Positions 50,568 through 54,256 of a DNA stretch of 64,000 nt are shown piece after piece. The notes below the pieces were generated by a model that was not told the origin of the DNA, did not search any database, and worked only from the letters and a program-made list of their open reading frames with translations. The stretch lies in NCBI GenBank assembly GCA_018432935.1, contig JAHDSF010000012.1, positions 62,001 through 126,000 of the forward strand, in the 5' to 3' direction. The DNA comes from Rhodospirillales bacterium (GTDB lineage Bacteria; Pseudomonadota; Alphaproteobacteria; Rhodospirillales; Shumkoniaceae). How positions within the stretch are numbered: position 1 is the first letter of the stretch; every line of letters begins with the position of its first letter. Both the position numbers and the translations under genes were made by a program.

Positions 50568-50927
50568 GGTGCAGGAACAAGCAGACGTGGATGGCGGTGC
50601 TCGTCACGGCCATCCACGTCTTCCTTGAGTGGACCCAAAGACGTGCCATTCGGTTGCGACCCCTGTCCACCCGGCGATGGACGGCAGCTCAGCGCCCGTT
50701 GCAGCCGTTCAGGGGTGTAATCGCAGTACGCGACAGCAGCCATCGACTCAAGGGCCTCGGCGCAGCCAAAGCCGATCAAATGCGGGCCGTGAGAGAGTCT
50801 GCTTGTAGACAACCTAAAGGGTTGTGACCAGTGGAAGGGACATGTACCATCCAGAGCAAGAGCGGTGGTGCGTAGAATTTCCACCAGCGTGCGCAAGAAA
50901 GCAATTGTCGCCGGGAGATCGGAGTCC
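50568..50927. other. 360-base gap holding a REP-like hairpin and defence-gene leader
   Basis: No supported gene. It contains the REP-like palindrome at 50583-50621 and, at 50810-50824, a small inverted repeat CAACC-5-GGTTG upstream of the SIR2 gene. Minus-strand reading frames cross it with protein-like stretches (for instance LIGFGCAEALESMAAVAYC) but without a ribosome site or a recognised domain; this may be a decayed sequence. The promoter of the SIR2 gene must be here; none was clear. Confidence 0.5.
50583..50621. repeat. REP-like palindrome (CGTGGATGGC type)
   Basis: A perfect 13-base inverted repeat, AGACGTGGATGGC (50583-50595) and its complement (50609-50621), with a further GTG/CAC pairing inside the loop. 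It belongs by sequence to the widespread GGCCATCCACGTCTT type of intergenic repeats of alphaproteobacteria. It lies 15 bases after the DUF2087 stop. Confidence 0.75.
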
Positions 50928-53900
50928 ATGATCAACGAAGCATCTCTACCTGATCTCCCTTCCACGCTTGTCGAGGCGGTAAAGAGCCGGCGTGCTGTCC
51001 TGTTCCTTGGTGCCGGCGCCTCCAAAGAGGCCCGGGATGCGAAAGGCAACCCTCCACCGAACAAAGATGAGCTTCGCGACCTACTTGCAGCAAGGTTCTT
51101 TAAGAAGGACATGACGAACAGAGATCTTGCCGCCGTGGCAGAGATGGCCATTTCCGCAAGCTCTGGGCAAAATGTAGTATTCGAGTACATAAAGACCATA
51201 TTCGAACCTTTTATGCCGTCAGAAGCACATTATATAATACCAATGTTTCAGTGGCGCATGATCGCCACCACGAACTATGACGTTATCGTAGAGCGAGCAT
51301 ACGATCATTGTACGGAGAAAGCCCAAGATCTCATACGCTTCGTTAAGGACGATGAACCTATCGAAGAACGGCTTCAGGCAGCGCGGAACCCCGTCCAACT
51401 CCTAAAGCTTCATGGGTGCATAGAACATATACACGATAGGGATATCCCGATTGTACTTTCAGCAGAGCAGTACGGTAGGTTTTCCGAACATCGTACACGG
51501 CTGTTCTCTCGCATTAGCGACGTATCTCAAGAGTCAGCAATCGTATTCGTTGGGTACAAACTAAACGACGGACACATTAGAGATCTAATATACAGGCTCG
51601 ATGCAAAGAAGCGCCCAAGGTGGTATATTGTTTCACCTGATTGTGACGGCCATGACGTCGATTTCTGGGGAACAAAGAACGTTGGCGTGATCAAAGGCAC
51701 ATTTGGCAATTTTATGGCGGCGCTAGACAGACAAGTTCCCGATACGGCCCGTCGTCTACAGTTCCATACTGACGTCGCCGAGTTTCCACTACGCAAGTTC
51801 TATGTAACAAACGTAATGGAAGAGCAAATCATAAGAGATGCGATTGGCACGGACCTCACTTTTGTCCACCAAGGCATGTCATACACGGCAGAGGATCCGA
51901 AGCGTTTCTACTCTGGGTACGATACGGACTGGGGAGCCATATTTCGCCATCTTGATGTTCGGAGAAAGGTCGAAGAGGACCTGATGTTGCGGGCTGTCAT
52001 AGAGAACGACAAGGCAAACGGCCCGATGATGTTTTTGGCCTATGGGCCAGCAGGATCCGGAAAGACCATAGCGCTGAAGAGAACTGCCGTTGAAACGGCT
52101 ACGGTCCTCGACGGACTCGTTCTATGGCTGAATTTCGGGGGAGCTCTTCGAAAGACGGTGTTTTCCGAACTATGGGAGCTTTGTCAGAGGCCAGTCTACC
52201 TCTTCGTTGATCATGTGGCTATACACGTTGATAAAGTGTTTAACCTGCTTAGTGCGGCGAAAAAAGATAGGATACCGTTAATCGTTATTGCTGGCGAGAG
52301 AGAGTCTGAATGGAATACATATTGTATGGCTCTTGACAACGAGTTCGCTCCGATATTGCTGCCCGTCGGGCATCTCAACAATGTAGAGGTGGATGGGTTA
52401 CTTGATCTCCTTGAGATGCATGACTGCCTTGGTGCAATGAAGTACATGACTAGAGAGCAACGAGTTGCGGCGTTTATGGATGAAAGGAAGGCAGACCGCC
52501 AGCTTCTCGTTGCGCTGCACGAGCTGACTCAGGGAAAGCCGTTCGAAGATATCATCCTTGAGGAGCATCAGCGCATATATCCAGAGAAGGCGAGACAGTT
52601 GTATTTGGATGTTGCTACAATGCACCAATTCACCGTCCCGATGAGAGCTGGTACGCTGTCACGAATTTCTGGTATAGAGTTTGCAGATTTCGAACAGGAG
52701 TTTTTTGAACCTTTGAAAAACGTCGTCCGTGCGGAAACGGATCCGTACACAAGGGACGTCCTCTATAAGACGCGACATTCCAGAGTGGCATCTCTGGTAT
52801 TTCGGCAGGTTTGCGGGGATGACGAGCAAAAGGCAAAGCAGCTAATTAGAATTATCCAGGGCTTCGATGTCGGATATACGTCTGACCGGACAGCTCTTGA
52901 GCAGATTACCCGGGGAAGGGCGGTAGCGGACAATTTTGGGGCAGCTGACTGGCCCCGGGCCGTCTACGATGCCGCATCGCAGGCGGCGCCTAATGCGGCC
53001 TTCATTTTGCAGCAACGGGCAATTTTCGAACTTAATCACGGAGATGGATCATTGGCTGCAGCGGAGGCGTGCGCTGCAAAGGCGGCGGAGTTGGACCCGC
53101 ACAACCGCACGATCATTCATACGCAGGCCGAGGTTGATCGTAAGCGCGCGAACGTAGAGGAGTCGCCGCTACTCAAAGAGTCGTTAAGGCGGAGGGCCAG
53201 GGAAAGGCTCGGCAAGATGCCCTCTGATGATCGGTTCGCTATCGGCAGTCGATGCAAACTTCTCGTAGACGAGATCGACGAATTGAGCGCGAAGCTGGGG
53301 GACGATGCAAAGGAGCATGATGCGAGATTTTTCGCTGACAAACTGACGGACGCCGAGAAAGCGCTTGAGAAGGCGCAGCAACTGTTTCCAGACGATCCGG
53401 AAGCGTTCCAGGTGGAGGCGCGTCTACTCGGAATTCTAAACATGGGGGATCCGGCGCTTCGGGCTCTAGAGAAGGCCTGGGCGGCCAGGCCGCGCGGGAC
53501 GAGCACGGCGATAAGGATTGCGAGGATATACGACTCCCGGGGCCAAGCCTCTCGCGCATTCAAGATCCTGGGCGACGCCTTGAATCGAGAACCAGATGAC
53601 AAGGCGACGCATTATGCGATGGCTATGCACCTTCTCAGGGAAAGCGAATATGACAGAGAGATTGTAAGGTACCACTTTGGGAAGAGTTATTCTCGTGAAG
53701 ACCGCAACTTTGACGCCAGATTTTCGTTTGGGGAATTTTTATTTTTGGCGGGAGATCTTCAGGGGTGTGTTGAAGTTTTTGCCGACCTCGATAGGAGGGC
53801 TCCAAGGGAATATAGGACGGTAGCTCCGAAGCAGGATGACGCAATTACATCCCGGCTTGAACGATTCTCTGGAACCATCGATACGATGAAAGATAGATTC

Positions 53901-54071
53901 TGCTTCATAAGAAGCGGGTGTTACCCAAACAACATATTCTGCCATTATTCGAGTTTTGGTGGAGGTAACTGGAATGAGTTGGCAATCGGGCAGGGGGTGA
54001 ATTTCCGAGTACGGTTTAACAGATTAGGTCCCCTGGCCGTGGACGTACAACCGGGCAGGCGTGGCACCTAA
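50928..54071 (+). CDS. SIR2-like/P-loop NTPase/TPR protein, candidate anti-phage defence
   Basis: A 1047-residue cytoplasmic protein. Residues 20-265: SIR2-like domain with VLFLGAGAS (24-32), TTNYD (114-118), LKLHG (159-163, catalytic-type His162) and VGYKLND (208-214). Residues 335-600: P-loop NTPase with Walker A GPAGSGKT (373-380) and Walker B YLFVDH (424-429). Residues about 670-960: TPR-like helical pairs (AEACAAKAAELDPHN, DAEKALEKAQQLFPDDPEAF, AFKILGDALNREPDDKATH). Residues 978-1043 resemble a cold-shock OB fold (RFCFI, NIFCHYSSF, then VNFRVRFNRLGPLAVDV). Known relatives (Avs5-type SIR2-STAND proteins) sense phage and deplete NAD. ATG 50928 has GGAG upstream. G+C is near 50% by eye and codons end often in A or T, unlike the neighbours: a transferred gene. 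It is a single-gene unit. Confidence 0.85.
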   Translation: MINEASLPDLPSTLVEAVKSRRAVLFLGAGASKEARDAKGNPPPNKDELRDLLAARFFKKDMTNRDLAAVAEMAISASSGQNVVFEYIKTIFEPFMPSEAHYIIPMFQWRMIATTNYDVIVERAYDHCTEKAQDLIRFVKDDEPIEERLQAARNPVQLLKLHGCIEHIHDRDIPIVLSAEQYGRFSEHRTRLFSRISDVSQESAIVFVGYKLNDGHIRDLIYRLDAKKRPRWYIVSPDCDGHDVDFWGTKNVGVIKGTFGNFMAALDRQVPDTARRLQFHTDVAEFPLRKFYVTNVMEEQIIRDAIGTDLTFVHQGMSYTAEDPKRFYSGYDTDWGAIFRHLDVRRKVEEDLMLRAVIENDKANGPMMFLAYGPAGSGKTIALKRTAVETATVLDGLVLWLNFGGALRKTVFSELWELCQRPVYLFVDHVAIHVDKVFNLLSAAKKDRIPLIVIAGERESEWNTYCMALDNEFAPILLPVGHLNNVEVDGLLDLLEMHDCLGAMKYMTREQRVAAFMDERKADRQLLVALHELTQGKPFEDIILEEHQRIYPEKARQLYLDVATMHQFTVPMRAGTLSRISGIEFADFEQEFFEPLKNVVRAETDPYTRDVLYKTRHSRVASLVFRQVCGDDEQKAKQLIRIIQGFDVGYTSDRTALEQITRGRAVADNFGAADWPRAVYDAASQAAPNAAFILQQRAIFELNHGDGSLAAAEACAAKAAELDPHNRTIIHTQAEVDRKRANVEESPLLKESLRRRARERLGKMPSDDRFAIGSRCKLLVDEIDELSAKLGDDAKEHDARFFADKLTDAEKALEKAQQLFPDDPEAFQVEARLLGILNMGDPALRALEKAWAARPRGTSTAIRIARIYDSRGQASRAFKILGDALNREPDDKATHYAMAMHLLRESEYDREIVRYHFGKSYSREDRNFDARFSFGEFLFLAGDLQGCVEVFADLDRRAPREYRTVAPKQDDAITSRLERFSGTIDTMKDRFCFIRSGCYPNNIFCHYSSFGGGNWNELAIGQGVNFRVRFNRLGPLAVDVQPGRRGT

Positions 54072-54163
54072 GGGTGAGACAGGTTCCGGCAGATCCCTCG
54101 AATCTCGATAGTTTCATGCCATCCCCAATCATTGCCGAAGTCAGACCATCCTGATTCGGCCAG

Positions 54164-54218
54164 CCCTTCGACAAGCTCAGGACGAGGCCCTCATGCTGAG
54201 CCCGTCGAAGCACGAGGG
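54164..54218. repeat. REP-like palindrome (CTTCGACAAGCTCAG type)
   Basis: An imperfect palindrome: CTTCGACAAGCTCAG (54166-54180) and CTGAGCCCGTCGAAG (54196-54210), complementary but for two bases, within a longer CCCTTCG...CACGAGGG unit. This is a repeat common in the intergenic DNA of many GC-rich bacteria. It lies 93 bases after the SIR2 gene and before prfC. Its minus-strand translation gives the telltale LRRAQHEGLVLSLSK string, so reading frames over it are not genes. Confidence 0.85.
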
Positions 54219-54256
54219 CCCGGCCGTCGCATCACACGCTTTCTCAAATCCGGGAA

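What the first reader, a model, noticed from the sequence alone, without database searches (positions are those of the whole stretch)
50928..54071. SIR2-P-loop-TPR protein with a cold-shock-like C terminus: candidate single-gene anti-phage system
The order SIR2-like effector, P-loop NTPase, TPR-like repeats fits SIR2-STAND (Avs5-type) defence proteins, in which the TPR-like part recognises a phage component and the SIR2 part destroys NAD. Here residues 978-1043 add a segment with spacing like a cold-shock domain (RFCFI, NIFCHYSSF, VNFRVRFNRLGPLAVDV; compare KGYGFIQ and VFVHISAV of the window's own cspA). An OB-fold nucleic-acid-binding tail on such a protein would suggest sensing of RNA or single-stranded DNA. 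I do not recall this arrangement from described systems, but I could not search for it.
Basis: partly seen in the sequence, partly recalled or inferred. Interest (0 to 1): 0.86.

Follow-up and report, generated by a model that had tools for sequence, protein, structure and literature searches.

The report
SIR2-STAND-TPR protein with cold-shock tail
This gene encodes a single large protein that looks like a bacterial immune sensor which would destroy the cell's NAD when a phage infects; it ends in a genuine cold-shock (RNA/ssDNA-binding) domain, a layout shared by a rare but very widespread bacterial family and resembling the core of the animal antiviral protein SAMD9.

Summary
The ORF at 50928-54071 (+; 1047 aa) is SIR2, then a STAND NTPase (Pfam nSTAND5), then TPRs, then a C-terminal cold-shock domain (CSD). 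The CSD passes Pfam's cut-off, is found independently in 35 of 51 homologous C-termini, and folds like CspA (Z 10.8, rmsd 1.7 over 66 residues).

This is not a one-off fusion: 51 full-length proteins from about a dozen phyla carry the tail, and all 51 keep the SIR2 Asn/Asp/His.

Evidence for defence is indirect but consistent. The gene is low-GC cargo; neighbours of homologues include R-M, DISARM, Lamassu and Mokosh genes; an E. coli homologue lies between psu and int of a P4-like satellite, a published anti-phage hotspot.

The SIR2-NTPase part is nearest EfAvs5, but Avs5 models are missed widely.

Best reading: an Avs5-like, NAD-destroying abortive-infection protein whose CSD contacts single-stranded nucleic acid. 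Whether the CSD is the phage sensor is untested. I found no published test of this architecture.

The parts
50928..54071 (+). whole gene, 1047-aa SIR2-STAND-TPR-CSD protein (stop codon included)
   Evidence: open frame and translation; single copy in the genome; full-length AlphaFold2 model pLDDT 86.6, pTM 0.56
50934..51755 (+). SIR2 domain (residues 3-276)
   Evidence: Pfam SIR2_2 111-254; fold match to ThsA 8bto Z 25.1, rmsd 2.9 over 255 residues
51273..51275 (+). Asn116 of TTNYD, SIR2 NAD-pocket/catalytic Asn; 51/51 homologues
51411..51413 (+). His162 of KLHG, SIR2 catalytic His; 51/51 homologues
51903..52325 (+). STAND NTPase, Pfam nSTAND_NTPase5 (residues 326-466)
   Evidence: 98.5 bits against cut-off 34; CED-4-like fold over residues 314-666, Z 16
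52044..52067 (+). Walker A GPAGSGKT (373-380); Lys kept in 40/40 of the clade to which this protein belongs
52194..52211 (+). Walker B VYLFVD (423-428)
52368..52877 (+). most conserved non-catalytic region (481-650), mostly helical, following the NTPase (winged-helix/helical part of a STAND module, inferred)
   Evidence: highest per-domain identity; secondary structure
52878..53807 (+). TPR superhelix (651-960)
   Evidence: Pfam TPR_19/TPR_14; helices in the model
53859..54050 (+). cold-shock (OB) domain, residues 978-1041; Pfam CSD 981-1041
53898..53909 (+). RNP1-like FCFI (991-994), equivalent to CspB F15-G-F17-I
53934..53948 (+). RNP2-like IFCHY (1003-1007), equivalent to CspB V26-F27-V-H29-F30
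50600..54100 (.). low-GC segment (49-58% inside the gene against 62-74% around), taken as horizontally acquired DNA; limits approximate

Best explanation
It is a single-gene, abortive-infection type anti-phage protein of the SIR2-STAND kind. At rest the STAND NTPase and TPR superhelix hold it inactive. A phage-derived cue acting on the C-terminal half (TPR plus CSD) triggers ATP-dependent oligomerisation or filament formation. That brings SIR2 domains together, and they hydrolyse NAD, which stops the infected cell. The C-terminal cold-shock domain binds single-stranded RNA or DNA through a conserved aromatic face, either as part of the trigger or to place the protein at phage transcripts or replication sites. 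Shown here: the domains, their conservation, catalytic residues, predicted fold, and mobile/defence genomic context. Inferred from Avs5, ThsA and DSR2: NAD hydrolysis, oligomerisation, abortive infection. Inferred from CspB: nucleic-acid binding. That the CSD is part of the sensor is a guess (about 0.4).
For: Domains and cut-offs. SIR2 N116, D118 and H162 in 51/51, Walker A Lys in 40/40 of its clade. Full-length fold: top Foldseek hit EfAvs5 9jap (E 3e-23), then SAMD9, AVAST5 filament and DSR2; 697 residues (model 7-785) aligned to EfAvs5. SIR2+NTPase profile: EfAvs5 is the best PDB sequence match, 1.4e-25, two stretches. CSD. CspB base-contact residues F17, F27, H29, F30, F38 (named in PMC4493011), plus F15 from the same binding-site segment, correspond to F993, F1004, H1006, Y1007, W1015 and F991. 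Mobile/defence context: low GC; plasmids; neighbours with R-M, DISARM, Lamassu, Mokosh, AbiE and MADS models against few and generic hits in a control; proviral contigs with integrase and Psu genes; E. coli homologue between psu and int of a P4-like satellite, the hotspot where anti-phage systems, including SIR2-STAND-repeat proteins, were reported (PMC9122126).
Against: No member of this family has a published activity that I could find. The window gene has only ordinary neighbours (a 183-aa gene of unknown role upstream, prfC downstream), so its own locus is not a defence island. CspB W8 and K13 are not kept, H29 is kept in only 19/40, and F30 is variable. No hypervariable region stands out: the distal TPR and CSD evolve only modestly faster than the SIR2 part. 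No effector swaps were seen.
Confidence: 0.62

Rival explanations
1. Same defence role, but the CSD is not a nucleic-acid sensor. It is a structural cap or protein-binding module that helps the TPR superhelix bind a phage protein, as Avs5 recognises the phage protein JADA.
For: Known Avs5 proteins sense a phage protein and need their C-terminal repeats, without any reported CSD (PMC12931631). The sister group of about 810 aa has SIR2-nSTAND5 and no CSD. CSDs can bind proteins: a CspC-endolysin complex is among the fold matches.
Against: The aromatic positions equivalent to CspB F15, F17 and F27 are kept in 35/40, 38/40 and 38/40; a mere cap would not need them, though they also stabilise the fold. 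The tail is present in both major clades of the family.
Confidence: 0.3
2. The CSD binds host RNA or ribosomes and keeps the protein off. Phage-induced loss of host transcripts or translation releases it (a guard mechanism, as one might imagine for SAMD9).
For: The domain order equals the SAMD9 core, whose members act on translation (PMC5445408; PMC13245274). Cold-shock domains bind many RNAs with little sequence preference (general knowledge). The tail evolves at about the pace of the distal repeats, which suits a constant ligand.
Against: No direct evidence. SAMD9's effector is the AlbA/tRNase domain, which is absent here.
Confidence: 0.2
3. It is a non-defence signalling or stress protein (for example a cold- or starvation-responsive NAD regulator).
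For: Its own neighbours are ordinary genes, and no activity has been measured.
Against: Rare and patchy (2 of 297 genomes in its order, 1 of 398 in its phylum, own genome included), carried on plasmids, proviral contigs and a P4-like satellite hotspot, with restriction and other defence genes nearby. This is a defence-gene pattern, not that of a regulator.
Confidence: 0.08

Closest known systems
Avs5 (AVAST type 5; EfAvs5 9jap, PaAvs5; PMC12931631)
   Same: N-terminal SIR2 NADase domain, central STAND NTPase, C-terminal helical repeats, stand-alone gene. EfAvs5 is the best sequence match of the SIR2+NTPase profile and the best whole-protein fold match.
   Different: Fails Avs5 models (NCBIfam 11.2 bits against 1000; PADLOC 10.5 bits). 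NTPase is nSTAND5 rather than nSTAND3. About 180 residues longer than EfAvs5 (869 aa), with additional TPRs and a CSD beyond residue ~785.
SAMD9/SAMD9L family (Mekhedov et al. 2017, PMC5445408)
   Same: Order SIR2-like, STAND P-loop, TPR array, C-terminal OB domain most similar to cold-shock proteins. Second-best fold match. Bacterial members are known.
   Different: No AlbA/tRNase (or kinase) domain. SIR2 catalytic residues intact. P-loop Lys present (SAMD9 has GGT/S). No SAMD9 chain among sequence matches at E <= 1.
DSR2 / ThsA (SIR2 NADase defence proteins)
   Same: SIR2 domain fold and residues (ThsA Z 25, DSR2 Z 23).
   Different: No nSTAND5 NTPase or CSD; different sensing (general knowledge: tail tube protein for DSR2, a cyclic ADP-ribose signal for ThsA).
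Cold-shock domains (CspA/CspB, UNR)
   Same: C-terminal 64 residues in sequence profile and fold, including most base-stacking aromatics of CspB.
   Different: Lacks CspB W8 and K13; part of a large immune-type protein.
SIR2-nSTAND5-TPR proteins of about 810 aa (L105-L116, L003 here)
   Same: SIR2 and nSTAND5 NTPase followed by a helical/repeat region.
   Different: No CSD; shorter repeat region.

Membership tests
Avs5 (AVAST type 5) | N-terminal SIR2 domain with catalytic Asn/His | tested here: met
   Pfam SIR2_2; N116 and H162 in 51/51
Avs5 (AVAST type 5) | STAND NTPase of the nSTAND3 type (PF20720), as reported in PMC12931631 | tested here: not met
   PF25199 nSTAND5 at 98.5 bits; PF20720 not listed at E <= 10
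Avs5 (AVAST type 5) | passes curated Avs5 models | tested here: not met
   NCBIfam Avs5 11.2 bits, cut-off 1000; PADLOC Avs5 10.5 bits
Avs5 (AVAST type 5) | C-terminal helical repeats | tested here: met
   TPR hits and helices 651-960
Avs5 (AVAST type 5) | phage protection by NAD hydrolysis after sensing a phage protein | not testable with these tools
   needs experiment
SAMD9 family | AlbA_2/tRNase domain (lost in some members) | tested here: not met
   protein starts with SIR2; no AlbA_2 in Pfam scan
SAMD9 family | SIR2-like, STAND P-loop, TPR and C-terminal cold-shock-like OB in this order | tested here: met
   definition from PMC5445408
SAMD9 family | P-loop with GGT/S (Lys lost) | tested here: not met
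   GSGKT in the window protein; Lys in 40/40 of its clade, lost only in a sister clade of 11
SAMD9 family | detectable sequence similarity to SAMD9 | tested here: inconclusive
   no SAMD9 chain at E <= 1 with SIR2+NTPase profiles, but Foldseek matches SAMD9 at E 2e-19 with low TM 0.30
Cold-shock domain (PF00313) | score above Pfam's gathering cut-off | tested here: met
   28.9 bits against 27 in the whole protein; 34.5 on the C-terminus
Cold-shock domain (PF00313) | five-stranded OB barrel | tested here: met
   predicted model pLDDT 85.6, five strands; CspA Z 10.8, rmsd 1.7 over 66
Cold-shock domain (PF00313) | base-stacking aromatics of RNP1/RNP2 | tested here: met
   F15, F17, F27, H29, F30 and F38 equivalents kept in the window protein, W8 lost
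Cold-shock domain (PF00313) | binding of single-stranded nucleic acid | not testable with these tools
   needs a binding assay

The most novel reading that the evidence does not exclude
A bacterial counterpart of SAMD9 without the tRNase: a SIR2-STAND-TPR immune protein whose cold-shock tail directly reads viral single-stranded RNA or DNA and switches on NAD destruction. It would be a prokaryotic NLR-like receptor triggered by nucleic acid through a cold-shock domain, and perhaps the stock from which SAMD9's sensor half descends.
Probability: 0.25. Interest if true: 0.88.

Novelty: new variant of a known kind. Interest (0 to 1): 0.64.

Why it matters
The prokaryotic STAND immune receptors whose triggers are best known (Avs proteins) recognise phage proteins. 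A family that ends in a cold-shock domain throughout makes it directly testable whether bacteria also have STAND receptors that read nucleic acid. The layout repeats the core of SAMD9, an animal antiviral protein whose OB domain is only predicted to bind RNA. A smaller bacterial protein with the same core, an apparently active SIR2 and a natural E. coli homologue on a P4-like satellite would be a tractable model for what that tail does.

Tried and rejected
Chance resemblance of the C terminus: rejected by the profile, independent homologues and fold.

Effector swapping (TIR or nuclease on the same NTPase-TPR-CSD block): queries without the SIR2 part found only SIR2-bearing full-length proteins on plasmids. 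In 398 genomes of the phylum they found nothing beyond the window protein and the shorter CSD-less group or repeat-only proteins.

Empty insertion site: two relatives keep the upstream 183-aa gene but no prfC match in the 12 kb around it, so the site cannot be reconstructed.

Phage genomes: no hit with the window or E. coli protein. IMG/VR gave nothing with the single sequence but eight members with a profile.

A direct SAMD9 sequence link was sought with profiles of both clades and not found.

No sigma-70 promoter or terminator above chance near the gene.

The EfAvs5 filament paper is not held. The careful tree did not finish; the quick tree is used.

Full report
Observation. The gene at 50928-54071 (+) is open over 1047 codons and occurs once in the genome. 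Pfam finds SIR2_2 at 111-254, nSTAND_NTPase5 at 326-466 (98.5 bits, cut-off 34), TPRs at about 843-899 and a cold-shock domain at 981-1041 (28.9 bits, cut-off 27).

The tail is a true cold-shock domain. When the last 75-100 residues of 51 homologues are scanned one by one, 35 hit Pfam CSD, and several others hit related OB families such as OB_RNB and S1. A profile of these C-termini finds UNR, CspB and CspA in the PDB at E 6e-13 to 1e-9. AlphaFold2 on the 80-residue tail gives a five-stranded barrel, pLDDT 85.6. Cold-shock proteins fill the top fold matches: UNR Z 11.3, CspC Z 11.2, CspA Z 10.8 with rmsd 1.7 over 66 residues; the first matches outside the cold-shock family score Z 8.9 and 8.7.

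PMC4493011 names the base-contact residues of B. subtilis CspB. Of those, F17, F27, H29, F30 and F38, plus F15 from the same binding-site segment, correspond to F993, F1004, H1006, Y1007, W1015 and F991 here; W8 and K13 are not kept. In the 40-member core clade aromatics (Phe/Tyr/Trp) stand at 991 in 35, at 993 in 38 and at 1004 in 38. Nucleic-acid binding is therefore plausible, but it is inferred. These residues also help stability.

Effector and switch. The SIR2 residues Asn116, Asp118 and His162 are invariant in 51 of 51 homologues, and Walker B Asp is kept in 48. The full-length model has pLDDT 86.6 and pTM 0.56. Its SIR2 domain matches ThsA at Z 25, and residues 314-666 match the CED-4 NTPase module at Z 16. 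As a whole it matches EfAvs5 best (E 3e-23), then human SAMD9 (E 2e-19), the AVAST5 filament and DSR2. The EfAvs5 alignment covers model residues 7-785, so the distal TPRs and the CSD are extra. By sequence, the SIR2+NTPase profile also finds EfAvs5 first (1.4e-25, two stretches), and no SAMD9 chain at E up to 1.

Distribution. Full-length relatives with the tail occur on plasmids of Methylobacterium, Vibrio, Klebsiella, Psychrobacter and Acinetobacter. They also occur in genomes of Pseudomonadota, Myxococcota, Thermodesulfobacteriota, Nitrospirota, Bacteroidota, Planctomycetota, Gemmatimonadota, Armatimonadota, Chloroflexota, Bacillota, Verrucomicrobiota and Actinomycetota; many of these are metagenome-assembled, so single assignments may be wrong. 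They are rare: two of 297 sampled genomes of the order and one of 398 of the phylum, the window's own genome included.

A quick tree (the careful search did not finish) separates two CSD-bearing clades, of 40 and 11, and two CSD-less groups of about 810 aa. The C-termini of the clade of 11 are homologous to the core CSD (hhalign probability 98, E 8e-14). All 11 score above every TPR and CSD-less negative control.

Context. The gene is 49-58% GC in surroundings mostly of 66-74%, and REP-like repeats follow it. I scanned 218 genes within three positions of homologues against PADLOC. They include type I and type II R-M, MmeI-like type IIG, DISARM (DrmD, DrmMI), Lamassu, Mokosh and AbiE models. 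A control of 139 genes from 20 arbitrary places in genomes of the same order gave ten families, mostly generic. The tool counts families, not proteins, and the control is not matched by taxon, so this is supportive rather than a statistic.

Eight members lie on IMG/VR contigs with integrase and Psu genes nearby. In E. coli N18-04097 a 1034-aa member with a textbook CSD lies between psu and the integrase of a P4-like satellite, and one IMG/VR contig has the same order. Rousset et al. 2022 defined exactly this psu-int interval as a hotspot of anti-phage systems. They mention STAND-repeat proteins there with SIR2 in place of TIR, without a cold-shock domain in the main text (PMC9122126).

Mechanism. 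Avs5 proteins hydrolyse NAD through SIR2 on sensing a phage protein, need an active NTPase and an intact C-terminal repeat region, and are thought to be held closed by that region (PMC12931631). I take the same scheme as most likely here, with TPR and CSD as the receptive half. The tail evolves at about the pace of the distal TPRs, only modestly faster than the effector, which suits a constant ligand better than an arms-race surface. That is weak evidence.

Known or new. It has been described: Mekhedov, Makarova and Koonin (PMC5445408) define the SAMD9 core as AlbA_2, SIR2-like, STAND P-loop, TPR, and a C-terminal OB most similar to cold-shock proteins, with bacterial members. The present family has that core without AlbA_2 or kinase, with catalytic SIR2 residues and, in its own clade, the P-loop lysine that SAMD9 lacks. 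It fails curated Avs5 models. I found no paper in the held library testing a SIR2-STAND protein with a cold-shock domain. I therefore call it a new variant of a known kind: it works like Avs5, is laid out like the SAMD9 core, and is a strict member of neither by the tests made here.

Noticed in passing
L086, L087, L088, L091, L092, L094, L095, L096, L099, L103, L104 (NTPase region): A sister clade of the same SIR2-STAND-TPR-CSD proteins from several phyla has lost the Walker A lysine in 11 of 11 (GxAG[YF]G[TIVM][ST]) while keeping Walker B Asp and the SIR2 residues, as SAMD9 has lost its P-loop lysine.
   Followed up: partly
L231 7456-10560; L169 2209-5313: Family members lie between psu and int of P4-like satellites (E. 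coli N18-04097 and an IMG/VR contig).
   Followed up: yes
L033 9992-13126; L034 9992-13012: A full-length copy sits on a K. pneumoniae plasmid named pKPC2_090249 that carries qnrS1 and LAP-2; eight other K. pneumoniae plasmids carry a copy annotated as two pieces, in the one inspected next to an IS110-like element and apparently broken; intact copies exist.
   Followed up: no
L105-L116, L003: A group of SIR2-nSTAND5 proteins of about 810 aa without the CSD; most members also hit nSTAND3 in Pfam, so they may bridge to Avs5.
   Followed up: partly
54165-54254: REP-like repeat just downstream of the gene, with over 20 matches in the genome.
   Followed up: no
50580-50630: Inverted repeat around GACGTGGATGGC / GCCATCCACGTC between the upstream gene and the focal gene; the stretch is unique in the genome.
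   Followed up: no
L162 and L163 (G755 contig C108, 3343-4299 and 7094-7660): SIR2 part and NTPase part of a relative lie in separate ORFs 2.8 kb apart, either a split version, an interrupted gene or two unrelated genes.
   Followed up: no
   Followed up: no
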